From a virus: DNA of 34,867 nucleotides. The stretch is from IMG/VR virus record IMGVR_UViG_3300007345_000121, positions 1 through 34,867 of that record. One strand, written 5' to 3'. The translations under genes were made by a program, and so were the position numbers. How positions within the stretch are numbered: the stretch's first letter is position 1; every line of letters begins with the position of its first letter. Positions 1 through 20,336 of the stretch are shown in pieces. Below the pieces are notes generated by a model. That model saw only the letters and a program-made list of their open reading frames with translations, made no database searches and was not told the origin of the DNA.

Positions 1-340
1 GAGCGGGTGTCGCGGGCTTCGGGCGAGTTTCTGTGTTTTCCGACTTGAACTCGGTTACGCTAGCCTCGATCAGCAGGCCGAGCCTCATCTTGAAGCCAGG
101 CAGGATCCGACGCATTTCCGCCAACAGGATGTCGTCGGGTTCTGAACCGTCCGACTCGATCCAGACGTTCCAAGTTACCTCAAACTCTTCTTCTGTTGGA
201 TACTTTTCAATATAGATATGGAATCCTTCGTATCCAGATACTAAAGGTTTCTTGTCAACAATAACAATTTTTGAGGCTGCAGCTCGAATAATCGAGTTAC
301 CGCCGAGTAGTTGCAGAATATCGGCGGAGCTAAAAATCAT
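1..340 (-). CDS. Hypothetical protein, 3' end outside window
   Basis: The frame is open from an ATG at 338-340 to the left edge of the window, so at least 113 codons are visible and the C-terminus is missing. The N-terminus begins MIFSSADILQLLGGNSIIRA, followed by an alternating hydrophobic and acidic stretch (about residues 25-60, ending in a VTWNVWIES-like segment) that looks like a compact alpha/beta protein. I do not recognise the family. The gene diverges from the small plus-strand operon starting at 406. The 65-bp gap holds one TAGGNANNCTA element in each orientation, which supports this start. Any function would be a guess. Confidence 0.75.
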   Translation of the reverse strand, partial: MIFSSADILQLLGGNSIIRAAASKIVIVDKKPLVSGYEGFHIYIEKYPTEEEFEVTWNVWIESDGSEPDDILLAEMRRILPGFKMRLGLLIEASVTEFKSENTETRPKPATPA

Positions 341-7273: not shown

Positions 7274-7828
7274 TTACCACTTTTGAAGTGGACACTGAGC
7301 GCCAGGAATTGCGGTCTTAATTCGCATAAAGCAACCGCATCGTTTGCATCGATCTAACGGCAAAAGCTCTGGACATTTCTTACAAAGAAGCATTCGGCGC
7401 TCTGCTTCATTCTTGGGCATATGTTGCACGTCAACCTTCTGCGGCGGAATGGGCTTGAGAGGAGGAAGCGGTCCGTAAGGGCCTCCATCCGGATGAATCA
7501 TTTTGCTAGTTTTATGTACTGGATAAGCTGCTTTTCTTCCATCAGGTAGCTTTGTAAAGTTTTCCCGATGATACTTCATCGGCTCGTGGGTCTTAAGACT
7601 ATCCGGATCTTCAAGCTCCTGGGAAAGACTGTCCATACGCTTGCGGTTTTTCCGCAATCTCTCGGCTTGCTCTAGGCGCTTCTCTTCTGCTCGTTGAGCT
7701 AAAATAGCCTCCTCTCTTTCCTGCCTTTGTATTTCTTCAGGATTAACAGGCCTGGAAGGGTTTGGATTGGTTCGACGGCTAAAGATGTTGCTGTCACCAC
7801 CGTTGGCGGAGTTTCGAATGTCGTTCAT
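7274..7828 (-). CDS. Structural-module protein with C-terminal zinc-binding motif
   Basis: 184 residues. The N-terminal half is a charged coiled coil (about 30-75, EEIQRQEREEAILAQRAEEK). A Pro-rich linker follows (about 115-135). The last 36 residues contain six cysteines (C149, C152, C161, C164, C166, C179) in a C-x2-C-x8-C-x2-C-G-C-F-M...CPLQKW arrangement, which I recognise as a zinc-binding tail shared by many cyanophage structural-region proteins. Its start overlaps the stop of the last fibre gene (TAATG), so it is coupled to the fibre array. Exact role unknown. Confidence 0.8.
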   Translation of the reverse strand: MNDIRNSANGGDSNIFSRRTNPNPSRPVNPEEIQRQEREEAILAQRAEEKRLEQAERLRKNRKRMDSLSQELEDPDSLKTHEPMKYHRENFTKLPDGRKAAYPVHKTSKMIHPDGGPYGPLPPLKPIPPQKVDVQHMPKNEAERRMLLCKKCPELLPLDRCKRCGCFMRIKTAIPGAQCPLQKW

Positions 7829-8505
7829 TACAGGGCAGCGATACGGGTTTTAAAGTCTGCAAAATCAATAGAAGCGGCAACTTCTGTCTTTAATGTTGCC
7901 AAAGGAATATACTCAACCCAGCTGCAGATGCCAGTCCCATCTGTAGTCAAAGCTTCGCCGACATTGCCGGCAGTTGGAGGAACCGTAATTGCATAGCTAG
8001 TAAGAAGAGTAGCGGCCACCGGCACGGTCAGAGTGACTTGATTGCCGTTGGCTTCTTCTTTCAGAACAATGCCTGCCGGAATAGTACCGGTACCTTCTAC
8101 TACCACTCTGCCGGTACCGTTTGGCAACAGGGTAACATCCGCGTTAAGCGTAGTGGTTGTGATCTTTCTGGTGCCTACTTCTAGATCGCCTCCCAGTATT
8201 GGAGTGGCATCATCCTGAATAGATGTCAAAGCATTGCCTGGCTCCCATACGACTCCGTCGTACACCAGGAACTGACCGGTAGTAGGAGGAGTGGTAGCAG
8301 TATCTACATCGGTAATGTCATTCAGTACTGTCGCACTCAGGTCGGGTTGAACCGAAACAAGGACGCCGCCCTCTTTAACATAAAGGCGATCTTCGTCCTT
8401 GGCATAGCAAACTTCTCCCTCGGCAATATTGGCCAGTTCCGCATTGAGATTTGCGTATGTTCCCCGCGCAATTCTGACAGGGATTCGATTACCAGGGGCG
8501 GCCAT
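7828..8505 (-). CDS. Tail fibre-like protein, class II (short)
   Basis: 225 residues. The N-terminus carries the class II module NRIPVRIARG...EGEVCYAKDEDRLYVKEGGV (residues 6-50), shared with the genes at 10452 and 14234. One DITDVDTATTPPTTGQFLVY repeat follows (about 62-95). The next part, DDATPILGGDLEVGTRKITT onward with TLTVPVAATLLTSYAITVPP (about 95-195), matches the 'GGNLDVNG..TLTLP' fibre segment found also in the 1455-residue protein. It is the last fibre gene and is coupled to the zinc-cluster gene. It may be a fibre tip or connector subunit. Confidence 0.8.
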   Translation of the reverse strand: MAAPGNRIPVRIARGTYANLNAELANIAEGEVCYAKDEDRLYVKEGGVLVSVQPDLSATVLNDITDVDTATTPPTTGQFLVYDGVVWEPGNALTSIQDDATPILGGDLEVGTRKITTTTLNADVTLLPNGTGRVVVEGTGTIPAGIVLKEEANGNQVTLTVPVAATLLTSYAITVPPTAGNVGEALTTDGTGICSWVEYIPLATLKTEVAASIDFADFKTRIAAL

Positions 8506-8524
8506 TTCAGAATCAAAGCTGGAC

Positions 8525-8535
8525 TAGGATACCTA
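8525..8535 (-). promoter_or_regulatory. TAGGNANNCTA element upstream of gene at 8505
   Basis: Coding-strand TAGGTATCCTA, extended to a dyad GACTAG-GTATC-CTAGTC. Its TAG is the stop of the class I fibre upstream. Core 20 nt before the ATG. Confidence 0.65.
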
Positions 8536-10428
8536 GTCAAAATCTCCAGCATCAAATATATCGTTGGCTACAGGAGTATCTTCGGTGGCTGTGTCAAAAT
8601 CGCCGCCGCCATAGATGCCGTCAACGGATGGCACGCTAACGGTAGTTGTATCGAAATCGCCGCCGTCGCCTCGGCCGTTATCTTGAGCCGTTGAAGATGG
8701 CGTCCAGTAACCCATCGCTCCGTCCCATCGCAATACGTCTCCGTCACTTGCTGTAGTTTTGTATGTCGTATTAACGTCATAAAGCATGTCAATACTGCCG
8801 CCGGCTTCGCGACCGTAACCACGAGAGGGTGCAGCAGGAAGATTGAATTCTGTAGCGTTTGGATAGAGAACAGTGTTGCTATAGAATTGAAGATCATCTA
8901 TCGCTCCATCAAAATGCATATCCCGTTCGGCGGCATTAAAATATGGGAAAAATCCTCCAATCCTCCACTCGTCAAAATCTATGGGACTAAAGTTAATTAG
9001 CTCAGTCAGGGTGCGGCGCATTTGCAGCTTACCATCAAGAAAGGCGGAGTACGTGTAGTCATCTTCTCTTTGGAAACAACAATGATGCCACTCCCCGTCC
9101 ATTCTGGCGTCCGATTCTTGATTGCAGCCCACGATATAGCCATCGCCAGACGCATCATTCGTTCTTTGCCAAAGAGTCATTGCCGGCGAGGCTGCGAAGA
9201 ATTGCGGCTCTCCCGAAAGATCCGTTGGATGGTAGTAGGTCTGAGGGCCTTCAGTTCCGGTGTTTCTCCTGCGAGGAATTGCGATCCTGAAGCCGGTTTG
9301 ATCCGGATCGTAGTCGGGAACAGCGCTGCTTGCGCTTGAAATAACAAAGTCGGTGTCAATGCTACCAAAGCTAGGCGGGTAAAAATTATCATCTCTTCCT
9401 AGGAACCAAAATTGTACAGTCCAAGGCTGAGTTGTAATTTTGGGAATATTACGCACAATTAACGGGCCGGTGGTCAGACTGAAGTTCATTCCACCGGTCC
9501 CGAACTTGAAAACACTCGTGTCAGGGTAGGAGTAAGGTCCGTATTCAGAAGTATCGACCTCGGACTCCCTACCGGCCGGCGTATCAGGCTCGGAGCTTAC
9601 GTACAAATCGCTGTAGACAACAAGCGGATCTTTTGCAGCTATATGAGGACGAGGAGACCAGGTATTGTTGACACGTTCAAGCGAATCGCCTTCTTTTAAG
9701 CCAGTCGCAGAAACGTCGCCAAGGTTAGCTACCGTATTTGGAATATTGACAAAAGTGCTCAGAGTTTGGTCATAAACAAGAGAGTCACCTTCCGCCGGAG
9801 TGGTGATGGCGACATCGTCAAGAGAAGACAGGCTTCCCTCAAGAGCGATCCATTTACTATTTGCCGAATCATAAGCAAGCCTATAGTTATCGGCTAGTGT
9901 AATTCCGGTAAAATCAATATTTCCAAAGTCGCCTACGTTATACGCTGAAGTCCATCGAGAATTTATGTCGTCCCAGGCAAGAACTGATTTGTCAGGAATG
10001 TTTGCGCCAACCTTTGTAACAGTACCGCTATCGGCGGAAACTGGCAATGTTACGCTTGGACCTGCAAATATTACCTGTGTCGTTGAAGGCGTGCCCGTAA
10101 CTTCCCAGGTGCCATCGAGTACAGTGTTTATAGTTGCCGCTACCGTTGCGTAGTTTCCTACGATAAGACCATGAGCAGTATTTGTAGTTATCGTTACGTT
10201 TCCAATGCCATCGGCTTCTACGAATGTAATTGTAGTTGGCACATTGGAGGCGATAAAGACATCTCCAATATCGCTAAGAAAGTCCGGAGCGTCAATTGTT
10301 ACGCCACCAAGAGTAAGGCCATCGCCAACATAAAACTTCTTGGTATCAGTTGCATAGACCGGCTCTCCGGCGGCAAAAACAGTAGTCAGCCGCTCGGCAT
10401 CAGTGCCACGCCGAATTTGGAGAGCCAT
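8533..10428 (-). CDS. Tail fibre, class I, with LamG-like domain
   Basis: 631 residues. Domain order: an Mtd-like N-terminal module (1-48, MALQIRRGTDAERL...YVGDGLTLGG); a beta module with NTAHGLIVGN...DSGTVTKVG (about 70-140); several 'LDDVAITTPAEGDSLVYDQT' repeats (about 150-260); a laminin-G/concanavalin-like domain (about 300-545, with TVQFWF, GEWHHCCFQRE, SAFLDGKLQMR and FDGAIDDLQFYS); and the shared C-terminal module GRGDGGDFD...IYGGGDFD...DAGDFD (587-631). The LamG-like region is a plausible glycan-binding receptor domain. It is followed by a class II gene. Confidence 0.88.
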   Translation of the reverse strand: MALQIRRGTDAERLTTVFAAGEPVYATDTKKFYVGDGLTLGGVTIDAPDFLSDIGDVFIASNVPTTITFVEADGIGNVTITTNTAHGLIVGNYATVAATINTVLDGTWEVTGTPSTTQVIFAGPSVTLPVSADSGTVTKVGANIPDKSVLAWDDINSRWTSAYNVGDFGNIDFTGITLADNYRLAYDSANSKWIALEGSLSSLDDVAITTPAEGDSLVYDQTLSTFVNIPNTVANLGDVSATGLKEGDSLERVNNTWSPRPHIAAKDPLVVYSDLYVSSEPDTPAGRESEVDTSEYGPYSYPDTSVFKFGTGGMNFSLTTGPLIVRNIPKITTQPWTVQFWFLGRDDNFYPPSFGSIDTDFVISSASSAVPDYDPDQTGFRIAIPRRRNTGTEGPQTYYHPTDLSGEPQFFAASPAMTLWQRTNDASGDGYIVGCNQESDARMDGEWHHCCFQREDDYTYSAFLDGKLQMRRTLTELINFSPIDFDEWRIGGFFPYFNAAERDMHFDGAIDDLQFYSNTVLYPNATEFNLPAAPSRGYGREAGGSIDMLYDVNTTYKTTASDGDVLRWDGAMGYWTPSSTAQDNGRGDGGDFDTTTVSVPSVDGIYGGGDFDTATEDTPVANDIFDAGDFD

Positions 10429-10451
10429 GCCGTGTCAAAAAAAAATCTAGA

Positions 10452-11621
10452 TTAGGATTCCAGCTCCCTGATGCGCGACTCCAGATGACTGACTTGCTGA
10501 GAAAGCTCCTGGATCGCGTTGACCAAAATAGGAAGCAAGGAGTCAGAGCGAAGGCGAAGTTTTTCTGGAGTTTCGTTATCAACAACGACCGGATTTTCCT
10601 CCCCTTCGATTTTAAGGATGTCCTGAGCCTTGAAGCCATAGCGCACTGGTCCGTGGGCTTCTTCGGAATCCCTGTTCTTCCGGAACTGATAACTAACTGG
10701 CTTGAGAGCATTAACAAAGGCTAAACCGTGATCAACGTAGCCAAAGTTTGTCTTGTCTCGTTCGTCGGAAACAGCCGTCCAGGCAACTTGAATGTACGCA
10801 TTGGTAACAGCGGTGCTACCCATGACGATACGATTGTCAGTATTGGCAGCAAAAACGGGATTCCATGTTCCAGTGGCGTCTCTGCCGCCGATGCAGATAT
10901 TGCCGTCACCACTTGACCAGCCATTCTGCCCCCCGGAGGGATCGTGCCCAGCGCTCTCACCGATGAAAGTATTGTAACTCCCTGAGGCAAGCCTTCCGCC
11001 GGCGTTGTAGCCAATTATGGTGTTCTTCTCTCCCGTGGTTGCAACAATTGCAGCCTTTGATCCGACTACAGTGTTCTGAGTCCCAAGAGATGCGTTGGCG
11101 GCATTTAGCGCATTGTAACCGATGACTACGCAGTCAGCCCTGTTTGTAGTCAAGGCCATCGCGCCGTTGCCGATGACTACGTTTTGATTGCCGCCGGTGT
11201 TAAGCTCACTGGCCTGATAACCGATAGAGATGCAATCATCCTGTGTTTGATTATCTTGATTCGCGTGGTAACCAATGCCAATATTCCTTGCACCGGTAGT
11301 AACCGCATTGTTTGCATTTACGCCAATCTCAAGGTTGTCGTTGGCGACGCTACTAGGAACCCAGTTGGCGCCATCGTAAGCCAAGAGACTAGAGATTCCA
11401 GGGACGGCTGTAGTTGTGTCAACGTCCGTCAGATCGTCGATAACTGAAACTGATGTTCCGATCCCTGCAAGAACTAAGACACCGCCCTCTTTTACGTAGA
11501 GCCTGTTCTCGTCGGTAGAGTAACAAATCTCGCCTTCGTAAAGATCTCCAACGCTTGCATTCAAATCAGCGATAGCGCCTCTCGCAATACGGACCGGTAC
11601 GCGATTCTGAGGAGTAGCCAT
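10452..11621 (-). CDS. Tail fibre, class II, with YadA-like head repeats and S74 chaperone domain
   Basis: 389 residues. The class II N-terminus (NRVPVRIARG...EGEICYSTDENRLYVKEGG) is followed by one DDLTDVDTTTAVPG repeat, then a run of 'NxxIGYxA' beta-roll repeats (about 100-265, e.g. NVVIGNGAMALTTNRADCVV) as in trimeric autotransporter heads. The C-terminal 105 residues are a Peptidase_S74 intramolecular chaperone: it begins SDERDKTNFGYVDHGLAFVN (S285), then YGFKAQDI and a terminal coiled coil (QELSQQVSHLESRIREL). Such domains help trimerise the fibre and then cleave themselves off before the Ser, leaving about 284 residues. Confidence 0.92.
   Translation of the reverse strand: MATPQNRVPVRIARGAIADLNASVGDLYEGEICYSTDENRLYVKEGGVLVLAGIGTSVSVIDDLTDVDTTTAVPGISSLLAYDGANWVPSSVANDNLEIGVNANNAVTTGARNIGIGYHANQDNQTQDDCISIGYQASELNTGGNQNVVIGNGAMALTTNRADCVVIGYNALNAANASLGTQNTVVGSKAAIVATTGEKNTIIGYNAGGRLASGSYNTFIGESAGHDPSGGQNGWSSGDGNICIGGRDATGTWNPVFAANTDNRIVMGSTAVTNAYIQVAWTAVSDERDKTNFGYVDHGLAFVNALKPVSYQFRKNRDSEEAHGPVRYGFKAQDILKIEGEENPVVVDNETPEKLRLRSDSLLPILVNAIQELSQQVSHLESRIRELES
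10453..10463 (-). promoter_or_regulatory. TAGGNANNCTA-type element upstream of gene at 10428
   Basis: Coding-strand CTGGAATCCTA. The following A completes the TAA stop of the S74 fibre. Core 25 nt before the ATG, with a run of nine T between. Confidence 0.55.
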
Positions 11622-11640
11622 CTTAATACAAAAGCTGAGT

Positions 11641-11651
11641 TAGTTTACCGT
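11641..11651 (-). promoter_or_regulatory. TAGGNANNCTA-type element upstream of gene at 11621
   Basis: Coding-strand ACGGTAAACTA, core 20 nt before the ATG. The downstream flank CTAACTCAGCT is nearly identical to that of the 12451 site, as expected if this intergene was duplicated. Confidence 0.6.
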
Positions 11652-12451
11652 CAGAACTGACCAGCATCTAGCAGTCCGTCGAATTCAACAGGTTCGTCGT
11701 TAAGGGTATTAGCGAAATCTCCTCCGCCATAGACGTTAAGAGCAAAAACATGCGCAATTGGCGTAGTAAAGTCGCCGCCATCACCTCTGGTTGTACTTCC
11801 GGGGGCGGGGACCCAATTGACTCCATCATAGGTAAGAGAAAGGCCTACGGCAGGAGGAGTTGTTACGAAGTCTGTGTCACCAAGAGCTGCAAGAGTATAC
11901 GGTTTCTCTTCCCAAAGCTGTGTGCCTGTATTGAAGGAAAAAGCAGAGTTGTCAACAGTTGGTGGCTCCAACTGCACCCATTTAGTCAAGGCAGCACTAT
12001 AAACTAACAGTGCCCCTGTGTTTATATTATATCCACTTCTGATTACTGTTCCGCTGTCCGGGGTAGAGGCAATGTCTCCGGATAACGTCGGCACTTCAAG
12101 TACGTTTGCACTAGGAGTTCCCGAAACAGTATAAACCCCGGTCAGGGACGTGTTAGAAGTACTGGTAAACTGGACTTCAAGTCCACCACTAAGCGCATGA
12201 GGCGTTGCTGTTGTAATAGATAAAGTCCCGGAAGAAACTGCAATAGAGGTTACACTTAGGGCCGCAAACGTAGGAAGAGATACGTCTGAAACTTGCCCGA
12301 TGTCTCCAGCGCTTATGGGATTGCCGCCAGCGGTTACACCATCCCCAATATAAACAGTATTCAGTGTAGTGTCATAGATAGGCTCTCCAGCTGCAGGTAC
12401 GAACCCGTTAAGTCGATCACTTTGAGGCCCGCGCCTAAACTGGAAAGCCAT
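11651..12451 (-). CDS. Tail fibre-like protein, class I (short)
   Basis: 266 residues. It has the class I Mtd-like N-terminus (MAFQFRRGPQSDRLNGF...YIGDGVTAGG, 1-47), the beta module (ITTATPHALSGGLEVQFTST...DSGTVIRSG, about 65-135), two repeat units (ALLVYSAALTKWVQLEPP and LAALGDTDFVTTPPAVGLSL, about 145-215) and the C-terminal module TRGDGGDFT...VYGGGDFA...DAGQF (220-266). It lacks any large binding domain, so it may be a structural scaffold or adaptor version of the class I fibres. Confidence 0.82.
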   Translation of the reverse strand: MAFQFRRGPQSDRLNGFVPAAGEPIYDTTLNTVYIGDGVTAGGNPISAGDIGQVSDVSLPTFAALSVTSIAVSSGTLSITTATPHALSGGLEVQFTSTSNTSLTGVYTVSGTPSANVLEVPTLSGDIASTPDSGTVIRSGYNINTGALLVYSAALTKWVQLEPPTVDNSAFSFNTGTQLWEEKPYTLAALGDTDFVTTPPAVGLSLTYDGVNWVPAPGSTTRGDGGDFTTPIAHVFALNVYGGGDFANTLNDEPVEFDGLLDAGQF

Positions 12452-12470
12452 TTCTACATCAGAGCTGAGT

Positions 12471-12481
12471 TAGTTTTCCGT
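12471..12481 (-). promoter_or_regulatory. TAGGNANNCTA-type element upstream of gene at 12451
   Basis: Coding-strand ACGGAAAACTA, directly after the stop of the class III fibre. Core 20 nt before the ATG. Confidence 0.6.
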
Positions 12482-12482
12482 A

Positions 12483-14204
12483 TCAGAGCTTGATTCTAAG
12501 CTCACCGGTAGATGTCTTATAGATGTCTCCAGTGACCAGGCCACCAGATCCTGCAGCAGTGTCGTCCGCATAAGTTGGACAAGAGGCTGCGGCAAGATTG
12601 ATAATGCCGTCATCTTTGATCGTCATGCGTCGTGACGGAATTCCGCTGTCGGAAGTGCCAGCCGTTTCGAAGCCAAGCTCAGCGTACACCTCATTGTTAA
12701 TGGCAGTACCTGTAGACTTGCTTACAATCTTTGCTCCAGCCTGGCTTAGGTCGCCCTGCCCTTCGGTGCCCCTGAATTCGATCTCACCAAGGATGTCGTT
12801 TGCAATAACCGCATTGCCAGCCCTGGTATTTGCGAATTGAAGTATTGGCCCAGTAGAGCCTAGGGCGGTATTGGCAATCAGCACCTGACAGCCGTCATAA
12901 CTTGAGCTAGCAACCTGGAAAGCAGGCTCGGCTACAATTGTATTGAAGGGAGCAGTTTCCGTATCACTAACCAACAGAGGGCCTTCTCCAATCAGGTCGT
13001 CTGCCTGGAACCTGCTATTGACCCAGGCAGTGCCATCGTATCTCAGGATGTCTCCAGCAGTTGGAGCAGTAGTGGTAGTATCTACGTCGGTAAGAGAATC
13101 AATACTATACACTTCCGCGAACTGGATATTGATCATCTGATGGTTTGAATCAGGGTTCTGAGTCGTGGTGGTAGTGTAATGCTTAGATACCACCGTTGTC
13201 CCCTCAGTCGTATAGCCCATGGACAGCCTGGCGTTCGCAACGATTCCACCAGGATTCTGATGAACCTCGGTAAGGCCGGGCGCTGATTGAGAATGGGTTT
13301 CTACTGCAGGATCGGAATAGATCCAGGTCGCGAATGTGACGTTCAACTTTTCAGCAACGGTAGCAATCGTCGCGGTATCACCATTCCCCGTATTCGTCGT
13401 AACGGATTCAATTCCAGTTACGCCAGGAACACTGAATATCGCATAACCGACACTGGCCCCCGTGTCCTGAAATGCGTAAGGACGGGTCTCGCTTGCGGTA
13501 GCTGTTCTGGTGTAAACTTTAAGTACTTGATCGTTTGCTCCGTTCGTAATATTCAGATAGGTTCCTTGCAGAGCCCAGCCAGCTGGTGGGGTTGTCGTTC
13601 CATTGGTTACCGTCATTAGGACAATAACAAGGAAGTCTCCTTCATTGATAGTCGTAAGATCTACGTTAAAGTTAGAGGTAGTTACATCGTGGTCAATGTT
13701 TGCATCACCGATGGCAGGTGGTGTCGAAAGGATAGACCTGTCCTTGGCAGGCACAAAGTTTGTGCCATCGTACTTGAGCGTTTCAGCAGTCACAGGAGCC
13801 ACTGTTGTCAAGTCGGCTGGGATACCACCAGAATTATCCGTGTCGTTGATCCATGCCGAGCCATTGTACTTCAATACCTGACCAGTAGTTGCAGACGTGA
13901 TGGTTACGTCGCTAAGATCATTGATTGCGCCGCCACCAGAATTATCCGTGTCGTTGATCCATGCTGCGCCGTCATACTTTAGCACCTGACCCGTGGTTGC
14001 AGACGTAATGGTTACATCGCTAAGATCATTGATTGCGCTGGCACCACCACCGATTTGAACAATCGAATTATCTGTGTGCTTAGTCCACATCAAGCCATCA
14101 GCCGTATTGATAGCAATCTCTGCTACCTCAAGGTCATTGGCCTGCGGGACTTCCGAAGCAGTACTACTCTTCTTTGGCTTAATAGGAGCGGTAAAATCAG
14201 CCAC
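12483..14204 (-). CDS. Tail fibre, class III
   Basis: 573 residues from a GTG (14202-14204), 22 nt after an element. The N-terminus is different from the other fibres: NDLEVAEIAINTADGLMWTK...IVQIGG (about 24-55), a segment seen at the start of many aquatic-phage fibres. Two nearly identical 36-residue repeats follow (INDLSDVTITSATTGQVLKY...AWINDTDNSGG), then a beta-rich domain (about 170-365), another DVDTTTTAPTAGDILRYDGT repeat, a C-terminal domain (about 410-540) and the terminal segment GGLVTGDIYKTSTGELRIKL. Probable receptor-binding or side-fibre protein. Confidence 0.85.
   Translation of the reverse strand: MADFTAPIKPKKSSTASEVPQANDLEVAEIAINTADGLMWTKHTDNSIVQIGGGASAINDLSDVTITSATTGQVLKYDGAAWINDTDNSGGGAINDLSDVTITSATTGQVLKYNGSAWINDTDNSGGIPADLTTVAPVTAETLKYDGTNFVPAKDRSILSTPPAIGDANIDHDVTTSNFNVDLTTINEGDFLVIVLMTVTNGTTTPPAGWALQGTYLNITNGANDQVLKVYTRTATASETRPYAFQDTGASVGYAIFSVPGVTGIESVTTNTGNGDTATIATVAEKLNVTFATWIYSDPAVETHSQSAPGLTEVHQNPGGIVANARLSMGYTTEGTTVVSKHYTTTTTQNPDSNHQMINIQFAEVYSIDSLTDVDTTTTAPTAGDILRYDGTAWVNSRFQADDLIGEGPLLVSDTETAPFNTIVAEPAFQVASSSYDGCQVLIANTALGSTGPILQFANTRAGNAVIANDILGEIEFRGTEGQGDLSQAGAKIVSKSTGTAINNEVYAELGFETAGTSDSGIPSRRMTIKDDGIINLAAASCPTYADDTAAGSGGLVTGDIYKTSTGELRIKL
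13831..14046 (-). repeat. 108-bp tandem direct repeat in class III fibre
   Basis: The sequence starting at 13831 (GAATTATCCGTGTCGTTGAT) recurs at 13939, exactly 108 bp (36 codons) later, and adjacent bases match closely over the unit. The repeat preserves the reading frame, so unequal recombination would lengthen or shorten the fibre without breaking it. Confidence 0.75.
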
Positions 14205-14225
14205 GGAATCTCAAATAAGCTAGGC

Positions 14226-14236
14226 TAGTATTCCTA
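14226..14236 (-). promoter_or_regulatory. TAGGNANNCTA element upstream of gene at 14204
   Basis: Coding-strand TAGGAATACTA within a perfect dyad GGCTAG-GAATA-CTAGCC. Its TAG is the stop of the class II fibre upstream. Core 22 nt before the GTG. Confidence 0.65.
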
Positions 14237-15940
14237 GCCGCTACCGAAAGTGCCGCCGGTAAAGGAACTAATTTCGCCCTGAGCATATGCCCTGACAGTC
14301 AGTGTTGCGTTGGCCGCAACGCCGCTTGTGTCCCTGACTGCAGCGTAGATAGTTTCGCTAGTAGGTGCATCGTTATTGAAGTAACCCATGGCAGGTGTCA
14401 GATTGGTCGTTTGGCCTGCGGGTATATAGATGTCAAGTAGTACACCATCCCCAGGGACCGGGTCTGTAATGAATTGTCTGCCGCTGTCAGCAGTGCGTTC
14501 TGCAGCAGTGGAATAGAACGTAACCCACGCATTGATGTCAGAGGTGATGGATACGAATGTACCCGAAACTCCAATGGCGGTGAAACTGGCTACGCCACCA
14601 GCTGCTGTCTGTATCTCTGTCGTGCGAGTAGTTCCACCTACGCCAAGGGCAGGTGCTGTTTGCTTGTAAGCCTTCAGGGTAATTTGAGCATCTGCGTTTG
14701 CGCCTGCTGGCGTTCTAACGGCGGCATAGATCGCATCAGCTGCAACCGTGTCGTTGTTGTAATAGTATGTGCCAGGAGAGGCGATAACGGTACCAGCTGC
14801 TGAGATGAGGAACTCGGCAAGAACCCCAGAGCCGGGAGATGGATCTAAGCCATAGTTGCGACCAGCATCGGCGGTTCTGGCGGCGGCGGTTGGATAGAGA
14901 ACGACCCATGCTTCGATATCAGAGCTGCCGCTAACCAGAACACCAGACTGGCCAAGATTAGCAAACGTAGCAGCACCACCAGATGCTACTTGAACTTCGG
15001 TTACCTGGGTGACACTTCCAAAGCCTACAGTTGCGCCAGAAAGGCCTACACTAGCTGGAATCCAGTTGACTCCATTCCATTGCAGTGTTTGGTTTGCAGT
15101 GGGACCAGAGGTGGTGGTGTCTACATCGCTAAGCTCGTCAATGCTTCGATTGAAAGTAGTATTGACCCAGTTGCTACCATTGTACTGAAGATCCTGGCCA
15201 GCAACGGCTCCACCAACAGAAACATCAGTAAGATCTCCCAGGTTAGCCGCGACGTTATCGTTGATCCAGTTTCCGCCGCTGTAGATTAAAGCTTGTCCAT
15301 TCTGAGGATTAGAGATAATCGTGTCAGTAAGGTCGGTGACGTTGGCAGCCGCGTCCCCAGGCTCCCACTCGCTATTGGTGTTATTCCACTTTAGTACTTG
15401 CCCGTCTGTAGGCGGAGTCGTAGCAGTGTCTACATCGGTCAGATCATTGATAGCGGCAACCAGAGCAGGAGTACCACTGAGGTCTGCGTAATCAAGTTGA
15501 GCGTCTACCCAAGCAGAACCATTGTAACGCAGCACCTCCCCGGTAGCAGCTGCAGTGATCGTGACGTCGCTAAGGTCTCCAATCGGCTCTGCTGTGACGT
15601 CCGAGATGTACCCAGAATCATTCGTAAAAGTGCTGACGTTTGTTGGAGTGCCGCTAAGATCTGCGTAATCAAGCTGAGCATTTACCCAGTCAGCGCCGTT
15701 GTAACGTAGCACCTCGCCAGTAGCGGCACTTGTAATTACAACGTCACTAAGTTCATCAATAGTTGATGCTGAAGGGTTCGCTGAGGTTGGAATTAAAGCA
15801 CCACCCTCTACAATATAAAGTCGATCTTCATCCTTTGCATATAAGACTTCGCCTTCAAGAAAGTCTGCTAGATTTGCAGTAAGGGCTGCCTTGAGGCCGC
15901 GAGCAACCCTTACTGGTACACGGTTTGCAGGTACAGCCAC
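14234..15940 (-). CDS. Tail fibre, class II, with duplicated C-terminal domain
   Basis: 568 residues from the GTG at 15940. An in-frame TTG at 15949 is possible, but the GTG aligns with the M-A-x-P-x-N-R start of its paralogues and sits at the normal 21-nt distance from the element. The class II N-terminus (NRVPVRVARG...LYAKDEDRLYIVEGG) is followed by about seven 'DLTDV...GEVLRYNG..WV' repeats (about 55-300). The C-terminal ~250 residues are two copies of a ~115-residue domain beginning SVTQVTEVQVASGGAATFAN and TTRTTEIQTAAGGVASFTAI. Such repeats usually build long trimeric shafts. Confidence 0.87.
   Translation of the reverse strand: MAVPANRVPVRVARGLKAALTANLADFLEGEVLYAKDEDRLYIVEGGALIPTSANPSASTIDELSDVVITSAATGEVLRYNGADWVNAQLDYADLSGTPTNVSTFTNDSGYISDVTAEPIGDLSDVTITAAATGEVLRYNGSAWVDAQLDYADLSGTPALVAAINDLTDVDTATTPPTDGQVLKWNNTNSEWEPGDAAANVTDLTDTIISNPQNGQALIYSGGNWINDNVAANLGDLTDVSVGGAVAGQDLQYNGSNWVNTTFNRSIDELSDVDTTTSGPTANQTLQWNGVNWIPASVGLSGATVGFGSVTQVTEVQVASGGAATFANLGQSGVLVSGSSDIEAWVVLYPTAAARTADAGRNYGLDPSPGSGVLAEFLISAAGTVIASPGTYYYNNDTVAADAIYAAVRTPAGANADAQITLKAYKQTAPALGVGGTTRTTEIQTAAGGVASFTAIGVSGTFVSITSDINAWVTFYSTAAERTADSGRQFITDPVPGDGVLLDIYIPAGQTTNLTPAMGYFNNDAPTSETIYAAVRDTSGVAANATLTVRAYAQGEISSFTGGTFGSG
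15440..15760 (-). repeat. Fibre-shaft DNA repeats (class II gene)
   Basis: Two copies of a module of about 180 bp encoding DVTITAAATGEVLRYNG.AW...AQLDYADLSGTP. They match the larger repeat block in the neighbouring 1455-residue gene, so the two genes share recombinable homology. Confidence 0.7.
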
Positions 15941-15960
15941 AGACGTCAATCAAGCTAGGC

Positions 15961-15971
15961 TAGGATGCCTA
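15961..15971 (-). promoter_or_regulatory. TAGGNANNCTA element upstream of gene at 15940
   Basis: Coding-strand TAGGCATCCTA. Its TAG is the stop of the 1455-residue fibre. The following AGCCTAGCTT resembles the flank of the 14204 site. Confidence 0.65.
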
Positions 15972-18900
15972 AGTGATCTCCCCTCCATCGACGTCGTAGG
16001 TTACGAACTCGATCGGATCGTCCTGAGAGGTAGTATCGATGTCCCCTCCACCATAAACGCCAAAGACGAATGCGCTGTCTACTGTTAAAGCATCTACGTC
16101 TCCGCCATCGCCACGGCCGAGGGAGGCCGAACCACCGCCACCAGAGATATCGGTATCAGGTACCCAGTTGGCGCCATCCCATTTAAGTACCTGGCCAAGA
16201 GTGGGTGGCGTTGTTGAGGTATCAACATCGGTAGCATCATCGATACTAAACGTGCCACCGCCGGATTCGTTTTGAGGTACCCAATTAGCACCGTTCCACT
16301 TAAGTACTTGGCCGCTTGTTGGGGCGGCTGTGGTTGTATCTACATCTGTAAGATCATCGATCGAAGCTGGAACAGTAGGCTTGTTGGTTAGGTCGTTATA
16401 GTCACCAGAGGTGGCTACAGGGGCCAGGGAGGGAGTTCCAGACAAGTCCGAGTAGGCCAGCTGCGCATCTACCCAAGCAGAGCCGTTGTAGCGCAATACC
16501 TCGCCAGACGCGGCTGCTGTAATGGTTACGTCAGTCAGATCATTCAGTGCCACTGGCCCAGCACTGACGGTGCCTGGTTCCCAGTTGCCGGAAGTCGAGT
16601 TCCAGATCAGGCCCTCGCCATTGGACGGAGCGCTAGTGGCCGTATCTACATCATTGAGAGCGTTGATGGAGCTGCCAGAAATGTCTGCTGGAGGAGCAGC
16701 AGAATTAACCCAGTTGCTACCGTTGTAGCTAAGAACGTCTCCAGTTGTTAGGCTGGCTAAGGAAACATTCGAGAGGTCCCCAATTGGCTCTCCGGTAATA
16801 TCAGTAAGATAACCAGCGTCATTGGTAAAACTGCTAACGTTGGTAGGCGTGCCGCTCAGGTCGGTATAGGCCAGTTGGGCATCTACCCAGGCGGTACCAT
16901 TGTAACGAAGAACTTCTCCTGCAGCAGCTGCTGTAATAGTTACATCAGAAAGATCGTCGATGGCACTAACAAGTGCTGGCGTTCCGGTCAGGTCGCTATA
17001 GTCGAGTTGAGCATCGACCCATGCAGAACCATTGTAACGAAGGACTTCTCCGGAGGCCGCTGCGGTGATGGTAACATCACCTAGATCTCCGATGTTTGCG
17101 GGCACTGTTGGAGTGCCTGACAAATCACTATAAGCTAGCTGAGCATCAACCCAAGCGGTTCCGTTGTAGCGAAGTACTTCGCCGGTGGCTGCAGCTGTAA
17201 TAGTTACATCGCTAAGATCGCCAATCGAGTTTCCGGAAATATCTGCAGGAGGAGCAGCAGAATTAACCCAGTTTGTTCCATTGTAGCTAAGAACATTGCC
17301 ATTGGCTGGACTGGTAAGTACAACATCCGAAAGGTCGCCAAGTGGTTCTGCGGTTATACCTGTTAGGTATCCGGCATCATTAGTAAAAGTACTGACGTTG
17401 GTAGGTGTACCACTCAGGTCGGTGTAGGCTAGTTGAGCGTCAACCCAAGCTGATCCGTTGTAACGCAAGACCTCTCCGGAGGCCGCTGCTGTAATTGTTA
17501 CATCGGTCAGATCGTCAAGAACAGAAGCCCCACCGCCTCCTCCAGCACTCCAGGAAAGGGTCCCTGTGCCGTCTGTAGTAAGGACCTGACCATTGGTACC
17601 AGCCGAGGTAGGCAGGGTTAACGTATAGGTCGCTGCAGCGGCGTGTGGAGGGCTCTTGATGGTTACGCCATGAGTATTTGCGCTGCAATTGAGCTTGATC
17701 GACCCGTCGTTAGTATTGCCTCGAACCTCCAGCAGGCCAGTGCCATTAGGGGCAATGCTTACGTTGCCATTGGCGGTACTGACAATGTAGTTACCGTTTA
17801 CATCAAGATTGCCGCCAAGCTGAGGAGTAACATCAAGAACGATGTCAGTAAGGTAGCCAGAGTCATTTGCAAAAGCTGAAACATTAGCAGGAGTATTCGC
17901 CAGGTCAGCGTAATCCAACTGTGCGTCAACCCAGGCACTGCCATTGTAGCGAAGCACTTCGCCGGCGGCTGCAGCGGTAATTGTTACATCGGTAAGATCT
18001 CCAAGTGCTCCACCACCGCCGCCGCCAGCGGGTGCATTGACCCAGTTGGCGCCATCGTATTGCAGTACCTCTCCGTTTGCAAGGTTGGTCAGTACAACAT
18101 CACCAAGAGTCTCTACTGTTGTAACAGGAGTAACTGGCTGCCATTTTCCGGCGGCATTGTTATAGGTAAGAACTTGACCGTCGGTAACATCATCTACGTC
18201 AATTTGTTCAATCTTGTTAAAATTGAATTCATAATAGCCGTCATAGCCTCCTGGGGCAGACTGGCCATAAAGAACAGCAAAACCTTTTCCCCATTCCTTT
18301 TCAGCAAAAGGACTTGTATCGAACGAGCCGTTTTGGGTGCCTTCGGCAGGGCCTTTTAAAGTTGCATCGTAAATTACGCTAGCAGTATTGTACTCCTGTC
18401 TCAGGTAACGCTCGCCATTGGTCAACCACTCGCCGCTACTTGTGGTCCCGGTAGTATCGAAGCCTGTGTACCATGGACCCATCAATGCGGCCCAAAAGTT
18501 AAAGCCTGAACTTTGTTCGGCGATACTAAGCTCTACGGGCCTGGTAAGGTAATACCTGGAAGCATCTTTTTGTCGCCAACGAATAACTAAAGTACGATTT
18601 CCGTCTGCCGCATTACCGGTAACCTGCCACATGCATTGATCGGCGCTTCCCCGTCCCCCGCATTCTTCAAAAGCGAAGTAAAGCTGGTTTGTTGCTCCAG
18701 CCCATCTTTCATCAATATTTTTAAACTCTTCATTTGTGCCGGTTGCATACAAGTAAGGATCTTGGCCGGCAGGCAGGAAAAGAATACCACCAGTGGAACT
18801 AAAAACAAAGCTATCGATGGTATATCCATATAATTCAATTGGAAACGGAACAGAGACTCGAAGATCTCCATTCGGATTTGTTGTTGGATAATAGTGAGCA

Positions 18901-20336
18901 CTAGAGGCACCAAAGTTACTGTACTGAACGACAGTCCATCCATCGGCCTCTGCCTGCGCAATATTCGCGTAACTGCCGCCGAAGGTCGCCTTGCCGACCA
19001 TCTTTGGAAGTCTGTTTTCGTTGTAATTCTGAGTGGGCCTAAGATGAACTTCGTCGTATGTAAAGAATGAAGTGCCATCGCCCTCTTGCGGGCCGGCTCT
19101 GCCCGTGCCGAACAAAGAGTAACTAGTCGGTGTATTGAACGTAGTGTAATCGCAAGTAACACTTGGATCACGCTTGAATCGCCAAGAACAATTCCCGTAT
19201 CTTACCTCATTGTCGTTTGTTTCCCACGAGGCATAGGCGGCAAAACTATCGTTATCATTAAGTTGAACCCATTCAAGCCATGGAATATCTGTATTGACGC
19301 GACTGTTTGGCTCGCCCCTGAAGTGAATGTTGTTTATCCCTGTCCCAGTATATGGATTGTTGTTGAGAATCCAGTCCCCATCCGTCAGAGCCGGATCTAC
19401 TTCGCAAACCTGCTCGTCGCCCTGGTTTAGTTCAATCCAGCCTCTGTAGTTCTCGAAGACAATGCTCTCGAGACGTTGGGGCGTCCACTCATAAGCCCTA
19501 ATCGGGCTAAAAGACTGGGAGTACTTAAAGCTCCATACGTCACGACTAGCAAAAGGATAACCGCTAGTAGTATAAACTACATTACTAGGCGCGTAAAGCC
19601 TATCTAATGGGTCGACTGATACTCCGCCACCACCAGACGCAACGTCACCATTGATCCAATCTCCGGTAGCGGAGTCGTATACAAGGGCTTGACCGTTACT
19701 GACGCCGCTTATGGTGACGTCTGCGTGATTCCCTAGAGTCTGAGCTGCTACGCCTGCGTCAATAGCAGCCTGCTGTGCAGTAGAGACAGGCTTGTCGATA
19801 TCGCTCGTGTTATCGACTTGGTCAAGACCTACGTCTGTTTTGTCAAGCAAACGAACAACAAATTTGTCTTTAGTTGCATCCCAAACAATCGTCGACGGCT
19901 CCACAAAAGAAGAGCCGTTTGCTAGCTTCCAGGTGCCGCGATCAGTCTGTAAAGATGTATCCGGACCTGGGTTGTAAACCCTGATAGTCGTGACACCAGT
20001 GCCGTTCGCCTCAACCGTAAAAATGCCATTGAAACTGGGATCATCAAGACCTGCAATTTCTACCTCTTCTCCACCTACAAGTCCATGCTCATACCTTGTA
20101 TTGTAAGTAGCATAACTACCAGTTCTTTGGTACGATTCAACTTCATAAAGATTAAGGAAGGTACCCTCGACCTCGAAGCTGCCAATCTTATTATTGACGA
20201 GAGTGCCGCCAGGGGTTATGCCATCACCAATATACAGGAATCCGTCATCATAGGTCCAAAGCAGCTCTCCAACCGCTAGTACTACACCGCTAAGGAGACG
20301 TTCTTGTGCAGTACCGCGGCGCAGTTGAAGAGCCAT
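15969..20336 (-). CDS. Giant tail fibre, class I, with tandem shaft repeats
   Basis: 1455 residues. Order: class I Mtd-like N-terminus (MALQLRRGTAQERL...YIGDGITPGG); beta module (NTRYEHGLVGGEEVEIAGLD, about 70-145); a large unique beta-rich domain (about 250-725, rich in Trp, Tyr and Cys, e.g. FAFEECGGRGSADQCMWQVT), the best candidate receptor-binding region; then about twelve shaft repeats of 35-50 residues (DLTDVTITAAASGEVLRYNG type, about 735-1400) interrupted by a QLGGNLDVNG...YTLTLPTSAG segment; and the C-terminal GRGDGGDVD...VYGGGDID module. It is the first fibre gene after the tail-tip genes and likely the main long fibre. Confidence 0.9.
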   Translation of the reverse strand: MALQLRRGTAQERLLSGVVLAVGELLWTYDDGFLYIGDGITPGGTLVNNKIGSFEVEGTFLNLYEVESYQRTGSYATYNTRYEHGLVGGEEVEIAGLDDPSFNGIFTVEANGTGVTTIRVYNPGPDTSLQTDRGTWKLANGSSFVEPSTIVWDATKDKFVVRLLDKTDVGLDQVDNTSDIDKPVSTAQQAAIDAGVAAQTLGNHADVTISGVSNGQALVYDSATGDWINGDVASGGGGVSVDPLDRLYAPSNVVYTTSGYPFASRDVWSFKYSQSFSPIRAYEWTPQRLESIVFENYRGWIELNQGDEQVCEVDPALTDGDWILNNNPYTGTGINNIHFRGEPNSRVNTDIPWLEWVQLNDNDSFAAYASWETNDNEVRYGNCSWRFKRDPSVTCDYTTFNTPTSYSLFGTGRAGPQEGDGTSFFTYDEVHLRPTQNYNENRLPKMVGKATFGGSYANIAQAEADGWTVVQYSNFGASSAHYYPTTNPNGDLRVSVPFPIELYGYTIDSFVFSSTGGILFLPAGQDPYLYATGTNEEFKNIDERWAGATNQLYFAFEECGGRGSADQCMWQVTGNAADGNRTLVIRWRQKDASRYYLTRPVELSIAEQSSGFNFWAALMGPWYTGFDTTGTTSSGEWLTNGERYLRQEYNTASVIYDATLKGPAEGTQNGSFDTSPFAEKEWGKGFAVLYGQSAPGGYDGYYEFNFNKIEQIDVDDVTDGQVLTYNNAAGKWQPVTPVTTVETLGDVVLTNLANGEVLQYDGANWVNAPAGGGGGGALGDLTDVTITAAAAGEVLRYNGSAWVDAQLDYADLANTPANVSAFANDSGYLTDIVLDVTPQLGGNLDVNGNYIVSTANGNVSIAPNGTGLLEVRGNTNDGSIKLNCSANTHGVTIKSPPHAAAATYTLTLPTSAGTNGQVLTTDGTGTLSWSAGGGGGASVLDDLTDVTITAAASGEVLRYNGSAWVDAQLAYTDLSGTPTNVSTFTNDAGYLTGITAEPLGDLSDVVLTSPANGNVLSYNGTNWVNSAAPPADISGNSIGDLSDVTITAAATGEVLRYNGTAWVDAQLAYSDLSGTPTVPANIGDLGDVTITAAASGEVLRYNGSAWVDAQLDYSDLTGTPALVSAIDDLSDVTITAAAAGEVLRYNGTAWVDAQLAYTDLSGTPTNVSSFTNDAGYLTDITGEPIGDLSNVSLASLTTGDVLSYNGSNWVNSAAPPADISGSSINALNDVDTATSAPSNGEGLIWNSTSGNWEPGTVSAGPVALNDLTDVTITAAASGEVLRYNGSAWVDAQLAYSDLSGTPSLAPVATSGDYNDLTNKPTVPASIDDLTDVDTTTAAPTSGQVLKWNGANWVPQNESGGGTFSIDDATDVDTSTTPPTLGQVLKWDGANWVPDTDISGGGGSASLGRGDGGDVDALTVDSAFVFGVYGGGDIDTTSQDDPIEFVTYDVDGGEIT
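16370..18010 (-). repeat. Fibre-shaft DNA repeat block in giant fibre gene
   Basis: About six near-identical units carrying the coding motif DVTITAAA.GEVLRYNG.AWVDAQL lie near 16470-16545, 16870-16955, 16995-17085, 17130-17215, 17430-17515 and 17915-18000, interspersed with divergent units of the same family. Silent differences between copies show they have persisted. The block is a hotspot for copy-number change. Confidence 0.75.

What the first reader, a model, noticed from the sequence alone, without database searches (positions are those of the whole stretch)
7828..20336. Seven tandem fibre genes alternate between two protein classes
In transcription order the N-terminal types are I (1455 aa), II (568), III (573), I (266), II (389), I (631), II (225). 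Class I has an Mtd-like R-R-G...Y-[VI]-G-D-G start and class II has N-R-[VI]-P-V-R-[VI]-A-R-G...L-Y-x-x-E-G-G. Each class I gene is followed by a class II gene. This suggests a two-gene cassette duplicated three times, and perhaps that the two classes assemble as partners. A single tail with seven different fibre proteins could be multi-receptor or a source of host-range change.
Basis: partly seen in the sequence, partly recalled or inferred. Interest (0 to 1): 0.75.

Follow-up and report, generated by a model that had tools for sequence, protein, structure and literature searches.

The report
Phage fibre genes with matching connectors
Seven neighbouring fibre genes of a virus that infects cyanobacteria look like three multi-part fibres, because the end of one protein predicts the kind of start found on the next, a plug-and-socket pattern that recurs in many unrelated phages and may show how such fibres are put together.

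Summary
The seven ORFs and the order I-II-III-I-II-I-II are real. The window is a fragment of an S-CBS2/S-CRES-type Synechococcus siphovirus. The 'two-gene cassette duplicated three times' reading is not supported: the class II starts fall in different parts of the tree. The partner idea is supported in a sharper form. In relatives and distant marine phages, the C-terminal tail of one fibre protein predicts the N-terminal class of the next gene: [DN]GGxF tails precede class II (89 of 102 distinct class II genes; 0 of 90 before other classes; 10 of 2,194 background genes); GGTFGSG precedes class III (18 of 18 loci found by class III); Pfam Phage_tail_C precedes class IV (17 of 17). Fetching by tail alone gave class II next in 56 of 57 distinct cases, the other at a contig end. 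In 27 multi-gene chains, 44 of 44 linked steps obey. The window then reads as three chains: 1455-568-573, 266-389, 631-225. Docking of tail to cap is inferred, not shown. The class II cap is predicted to be a trimerisation-type domain.

The parts
15969..20336 (-). chain 1, gene 1: class I (Mtd_N-type) head, 1455 aa
   Evidence: orthologous in position and tail to S-CBS2 gp030 and S-CRES3 gp93, which carry the Ib N-terminus instead
15972..16118 (-). T1 tail of the 1455-aa protein (49 aa, RGDGGD...YGGGD...DGGEIT)
14234..15940 (-). chain 1, gene 2: class II, 568 aa, orthologue of S-CBS2 gp031 / S-CRES3 gp94
15791..15940 (-). class II N-terminal cap (first 50 aa) of the 568-aa protein
14237..14269 (-). 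T2 tail GGTFGSG of the 568-aa protein
12483..14204 (-). chain 1, gene 3: class III, 573 aa, its start orthologous to S-CBS2 gp032 / S-CRES3 gp95; E1-type (terminal) C-end
11651..12451 (-). chain 2, gene 1: class I head, 266 aa
11654..11791 (-). T1 tail of the 266-aa protein; AlphaFold2 gives residues 215-266 pLDDT under 50
10452..11621 (-). chain 2, gene 2: class II, 389 aa, ends in Peptidase_S74 chaperone
8533..10428 (-). chain 3, gene 1: class I head, 631 aa
8536..8676 (-). T1 tail of the 631-aa protein
7828..8505 (-). chain 3, gene 2: class II, 225 aa, E2-type terminal C-end
2..340 (-). start of a further chain that runs out of the window: fibritin-like gene; in L120 (which holds window 1-60) it is 408 aa, ends DGGYFTP and is followed by a class II gene

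Best explanation
The cluster encodes three multi-part tail fibres, each a head-to-tail chain of separate proteins whose gene order is probably their assembly order. A head protein (class I here, Ib in relatives) presumably holds on to the tail by its N-terminus. Its C-terminal [DN]GGxF tail is a plug. The N-terminal cap of the next protein (class II) is the socket and probably also starts that protein's trimer. Other plug-socket pairs continue a chain: GGTFGSG to class III, Phage_tail_C to class IV. C-ends of other kinds (S74 chaperone, ...SSDYRLKS, ...FADFKTRIAAL) end it. In the window: 1455(T1)-568(T2)-573(end); 266(T1)-389(end); 631(T1)-225(end). Shown: the tail-to-next-gene rule and its breadth. 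Inferred: physical docking, trimer-on-trimer geometry, attachment of heads to the virion, and use for different receptors.
For: Upstream tail by class of the next gene, distinct pairs: class II T1 89 of 102; class III T2 21 plus T2b (DGGT[FYL]) 8 of 33; class IV T3 17 of 17; class I 0 of 11 and Ib 0 of 29 with any of these tails; background 12 of 2,194. After clustering: II 18 of 26, III 4 of 13 plus 5 T2b, IV 10 of 10; Fisher II-T1 against other classes 1.6e-12. Fetching by tail only: 56 of 57 distinct tails have class II next, the 57th has 22 bases left on its contig; about 32 of those 80 contigs had already come in by class II (my count from the lists). The same class II cap follows heads with very different starts: T7-tail-fibre anchor PF03906 (3 of 10 heads above cut-off, one below), Mtd_N, or no known family. 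In 27 chains headed by I or Ib, 44 of 44 linked steps obey; 20,000 shuffles gave a mean of 18.2 and a maximum of 31, and the upstream N-class does not predict the next class. All 10 distant genes tested upstream of class IV pass the Pfam Phage_tail_C cut-off. No II, III or IV cap was found inside any of 12,846 ORFs. Fused genes of relatives still obey: L015/L017 have a class II start with a class III-type end and are followed by class IV. In L218 and L221 the T1 gene and the class II gene are separated by one large gene yet both are present. The cap model resembles the collagen XVIII trimerisation domain (Z 6.3; 47 residues at 1.5 A for 9bnd) and Mtd (Z 4.5); the class I tail is predicted disordered on its own.
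Against: No interaction was measured and no complex was predicted. Adjacent segments can travel together by linkage. Tail classes were written down after looking at part of the data. Real exceptions: L183 (class II after a gene with a coiled-coil, S74-like end, judged by eye), L218 and L221 (class II not directly after its tail). Some tails are variants (ESGDFDP, DGGTAT, DAGNADS). GRGDGGD tails are followed by Ib-like genes in L218 and L221, and single DGGNF tails also precede another cap type, RIKRRAxGG. Within the DGGNF group tail and cap distances do not correlate (Mantel r 0.07, 111 of 1,000 permutations as high), so there is no fine co-variation. Z values under 8 can mean only a common arrangement.
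Confidence: 0.72

Rival explanations
1. Linkage only: the junction between two fibre genes is inherited as one DNA block because recombination falls inside gene bodies (repeats), and tail and cap do not touch.
For: Tails and caps are next to each other nearly always; long DNA repeats lie inside the 1455- and 568-aa genes; fusions exist (L015, L017).
Against: Within one joint type tail and cap distances do not correlate, unlike a block that moves as one; both ends stay recognisable across phages whose heads are unrelated; in L218 and L221 the pair persists when not adjacent.
Confidence: 0.17
2. One reading: a class I + class II cassette was duplicated in place to three copies.
For: Three I-II pairs; copies 2 and 3 are the most alike in both classes by pairwise identity (28/51 and 34/55).
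Against: Class II tree: the three window caps never form a clade (0 of 200 bootstraps), and the first groups with S-CBS2/S-CRES3, the third with other marine phages. Gene bodies differ in kind.
Confidence: 0.12
3. Seven independent fibres, each attached separately to the virion; the shared ends serve folding or trimerisation only.
For: The class II cap looks like a trimerisation domain; S74 on the 389-aa protein is a folding chaperone.
Against: It does not explain why the upstream tail predicts the downstream cap, nor why genes upstream of heads I/Ib carry no such tails (0 of 40).
Confidence: 0.1

Closest known systems
Anchor-branched receptor-binding protein systems (G7C, CBA120, K1-5, Klebsiella KP32-type; PMC6872550, passages read)
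   Same: Several fibre/spike proteins per tail, one anchored, others docked by conserved N-terminal elements; recycled standard parts across phages.
   Different: There the dock is a T4gp10-like domain of the first protein, with side branches; here the dock is the extreme C-terminus of the upstream protein, in line, with several tail-cap types and gene order matching.
Major tropism determinant (Mtd) of phage BPP-1, Pfam Mtd_N PF18454
   Same: Class I N-domain matches it in sequence (E 2e-5 to 1yu0); class II weakly by profile and fold.
   Different: No Pfam or PHROG sign of the C-type lectin part in the seven proteins; the joint tails are not part of the Mtd_N model.
Phage_tail_C (Pfam PF24243)
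   Same: It is the T3 tail; similar ends occur in 144 phage records by tblastn, 96 Mycobacterium and 34 Gordonia.
   Different: Pfam names it only as a phage tail tip domain; its pairing with a class IV start in the next gene was not found in the searches made.
S-CBS2 gp030-gp033 and S-CRES3 gp93-gp96 fibre loci
   Same: Same place, same head/II/III order, same T1 and T2 tails.
   Different: One chain there (Ib-II-III-IV), three in the window, with Mtd_N-type heads.
T4 long tail fibre gp34-gp35-gp36-gp37 (recalled)
   Same: A fibre made of several proteins end to end.
   Different: Recalled only, not compared here; no sequence link tested.

Membership tests
Mtd_N domain (PF18454) | Class I genes match above the curated cut-off of 26.3 bits | tested here: met
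   31.4, 35.1 and 36.6 bits
Mtd_N domain (PF18454) | Class II genes match above the same cut-off | tested here: not met
   389-aa gene 18.1 bits, the other two window class II genes none; class II is filed as a relative only
Mtd-type DGR target protein | C-terminal C-type lectin fold with a variable repeat, near a reverse transcriptase | tested here: inconclusive
   No such Pfam or PHROG match in the seven proteins; the window is about half a genome and no dedicated search for a reverse transcriptase was made
Anchor-branched RBP system | T4gp10-like docking domain in the anchored protein | tested here: inconclusive
   No Pfam match of that kind in the class I genes; PHROG 677 (baseplate wedge tail fiber protein connector) matches parts of the 1455-, 568- and 225-aa proteins; no structure search of those parts
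Peptidase_S74 chaperone-ended fibre | PF13884 near the C-terminus | tested here: met
   389-aa protein, residues 285-338, 38.3 bits
S-CBS2-type cyanosiphovirus | Homologous major capsid gene and synteny | tested here: met
   80.8-83.4% nucleotide identity over the capsid gene in 5 records; same gene order

The most novel reading that the evidence does not exclude
A general plug-and-socket code for phage fibres: a small set of C-terminal tails and N-terminal caps, shared by siphoviruses, T7-like podoviruses and probably actinobacterial and crAss-like phages, fixes which fibre protein attaches to which, lets distal parts be exchanged between unrelated phages, and makes the order of subunits readable from gene order.
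Probability: 0.55. Interest if true: 0.87.

Novelty: new variant of a known kind. Interest (0 to 1): 0.73.

Why it matters
If the rule is physical, the architecture of complex fibres could be read from sequence, which is now hard for the mostly unannotated fibre clusters of environmental phages. It would also explain how unrelated phages exchange receptor-binding parts: they share standard joints. It gives a directly testable interface (a tail of about 25-50 residues and a cap of about 50) and turns many 'hypothetical' genes into parts of a chain with a predicted neighbour.

Tried and rejected
Triplication of a cassette: tested by trees, not supported for class II, unresolved for class I; both trees rest on about 50 columns.

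Co-variation of tail and cap within one joint type: tested (Mantel, 51 pairs), r 0.07, not significant; reported as a negative result.

Solved structures: none found for the class II cap, the T1 tail or class IV (one search gave only a weak hit to a tail needle, E 0.16). The mycobacteriophage pair was tried as well: JHC117 gp5 no hit, gp4 collagens, collagen-like proteins and one phage hyaluronidase. The cr10_1 T3 gene gave only weak hits.

Class IV in bacterial genomes: one scan of genome contigs, 11 candidate stretches, none confirmed. The T3-class IV link in annotated phages: 12 regions read out of 60 rows listed of 144 records; the next gene looks class IV-like by eye in 11, but only 3 reach the inclusion threshold with my profile and 2 more are weak; phi17:2 does not fit.

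Homology of Ib and III caps to class II or class I by profile comparison: no support.

Papers: P-SCSP1u cryo-EM (passages) resolves only the fibre N-terminus; Douge cryo-EM (passages) gave nothing on this joint.
Full report
What the window is. The major capsid gene matches Synechococcus siphoviruses S-CRES1-3 and S-CBS2 at 80.8-83.4% nucleotide identity, and gene order agrees on both sides of the fibre cluster. The window is a 34.9-kb virus record, about half the 71-74 kb of those genomes. IMG/VR holds near-identical pieces of the same population (L013, L014, L026, L120).

The observation. The seven ORFs exist as stated. Class I is the Mtd_N domain by Pfam. Classes I and II are distant relatives.

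The locus in relatives. S-CBS2 gp030-gp033 and S-CRES3 gp93-gp96 lie at the same place. gp030/gp93 have the same C-tail as the window's 1455-aa protein but another N-terminus (MAVFPDRIVLKNSTD, here Ib). gp031/gp94 are class II and end in GGTFGSG like the 568-aa protein. gp032/gp95 are class III. gp033/gp96 begin with MGYxGSS...KxYxGxxLxWE (class IV). So class III belongs to the chain. The last four window genes have no counterpart at that place in those two phages.

The rule. Across relatives I noticed that the C-end of one gene goes with the start of the next, and tested it. Of 71 distinct class II genes with an upstream ORF, 59 had a [DN]GGxF-type motif upstream by a first regular expression. 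With better ORF picking, 62 of 74 did. The other 12 were: five ESG/TGG[DN]F variants, one DGGYF (Y not in the expression), two variants in L159, one wrongly picked ORF (L115, whose Ib gene does end in DGGELT), and three real exceptions (L183, L218, L221). In the largest set: class II T1 89 of 102, class III T2 21 of 33 plus 8 T2b, class IV T3 17 of 17, class I 0 of 11, Ib 0 of 29, background 12 of 2,194 distinct C-ends. At a laxer limit (E 1e-3) class III was 21 T2, 9 T2b and 11 neither of 41, several of the 11 being weak matches. Of the 10 background T1 genes, three are themselves upstream of a class II start cut short by the contig end (L144, L165, L255), one lies at a contig end, three precede another cap type (RIKRRAxGG), and three look like chance.

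Reciprocal test. I fetched loci by the tail DGGNF...DGGSF only (80 loci kept of 139 confirmed). Of 57 distinct tails, 56 have a class II gene next and one has 22 bases of sequence left. About 32 of these 80 contigs had been seen before through class II, so the test is only partly independent. For the GRGDGGD form (19 loci), the next gene is class II in 14; in L218 and L221 it is an Ib-like giant gene, with a class II gene after that; three loci (L210, L211, L214) gave no next gene. For class III, 18 of 18 loci have GGTFGSG upstream; for class IV, 20 of 20 loci have the T3 end upstream, 17 distinct.

Breadth. The head proteins that carry the DGGNF tail differ widely: 47 different 28-residue starts among those complete. 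Of ten scanned, three pass Phage_T7_tail (PF03906), one is just below, one is Mtd_N, one has only a fibre repeat (Phage_fiber_2), and the remaining four have no relevant match. One class II gene lies in an Autographiviridae record, overlapping the stop of the gene before it, and a contig of the same length is among the tail hits. T3 is Pfam Phage_tail_C. By tblastn similar ends occur in 144 phage records, mostly Mycobacterium and Gordonia. In 12 of those regions the following gene looks class IV-like by eye in 11, but only 3 by profile, so this extension is suggestive only. A further joint was seen in passing: class II proteins ending in ...RIDYVVRSSTSIHA...YS precede RSLRFN genes in 37 of 40.

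Grammar. In loci headed by I or Ib I found 40 chains, 13 of one gene and 27 of two or more. The 27 hold 45 steps; 44 follow a linking tail and all 44 obey T1-II, T2-III, T3-IV; one step follows a non-linking end and starts a new class I gene (389 to 631 of the window's own population, L026). Shuffling gave at most 31. The order of classes is free (Ib-II-III, Ib-III-II, Ib-II-II, Ib-III-III, Ib-II-III-IV), so position alone does not explain it. The E1 and E2 ends (8 and 4 cases) were not followed by II, III or IV. Applied to the window: 1455 T1 to II, 568 T2 to III, 573 E1 ends; 266 T1 to II, 389 S74 ends; 631 T1 to II, 225 E2 ends. A further chain begins at the window's left end and continues in L120.

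Structure. Foldseek puts collagen XV/XVIII trimerisation domains first (target TM up to 0.72, E 0.012-0.26) and Mtd lower; VIA-align gives Z 6.3 and 4.5. These are moderate scores. The class I model is poor (mean 59.5) and its tail is below 50. So the cap may both trimerise its own protein and receive the upstream tails; this is inference.

Origin. The tree of class II caps does not unite the window's three. The picture is of separately acquired chains placed side by side, perhaps helped by the repeats within the genes, rather than a recent triplication. Fused genes in relatives (L015-L017) suggest that recombination within the cluster happens and keeps the grammar.

Literature. Listings and passages read are named in Closest known systems and Tried and rejected. 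No description of this tail-to-cap rule was found in ten searches of the held library; most subscription papers are not in it, so novelty is unproven.

Verdict.

Noticed in passing
window 8525-8533, 10453-10461, 11641-11649, 12471-12479, 14226-14234, 15961-15969, 20356-20364 and elsewhere: GGNANNCTA lies 28-33 bases before the start of each of the seven fibre genes; 28 copies on the coding strand against 4 on the other (chance mean 14.3 for both strands). Seen also in S-CBS2 and S-CRES3. Candidate late promoter or processing site.
   Followed up: partly
window 20355-22808: 817-aa protein without Pfam or PHROG match, at the place where relatives have a gene of about 320-610 aa, often rich in Cys.
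   Followed up: no
window 7274-7828: Protein with a Cys motif of DUF6171 type; relatives have a similar Cys-motif gene after their fibre cluster.
   Followed up: no
L326 1366-3687 and L329 1390-3687: crAss-like phages cr52_1 and cr56_1: a T3-ended gene, then a gene annotated as similar to major tropism determinant, then a reverse transcriptase: a DGR target may sit on a standard joint.
   Followed up: no
L218 and L221: A T1-tailed gene and a class II gene separated by one gene of about 2,070-2,100 aa.
   Followed up: partly
class II genes of marine phages, e.g. L164 10001-14385: Class II proteins ending ...RIDYVVRSSTSIHA..YS precede RSLRFN genes in 37 of 40; the L164 one has DUF7483. A further likely joint.
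   Followed up: partly
L116 10001-10333, L117 9647-9970: Very small class II proteins (110 and 107 aa) that are little more than a cap and a tail, placed between a head and a large fibre: possible extension pieces.
   Followed up: no
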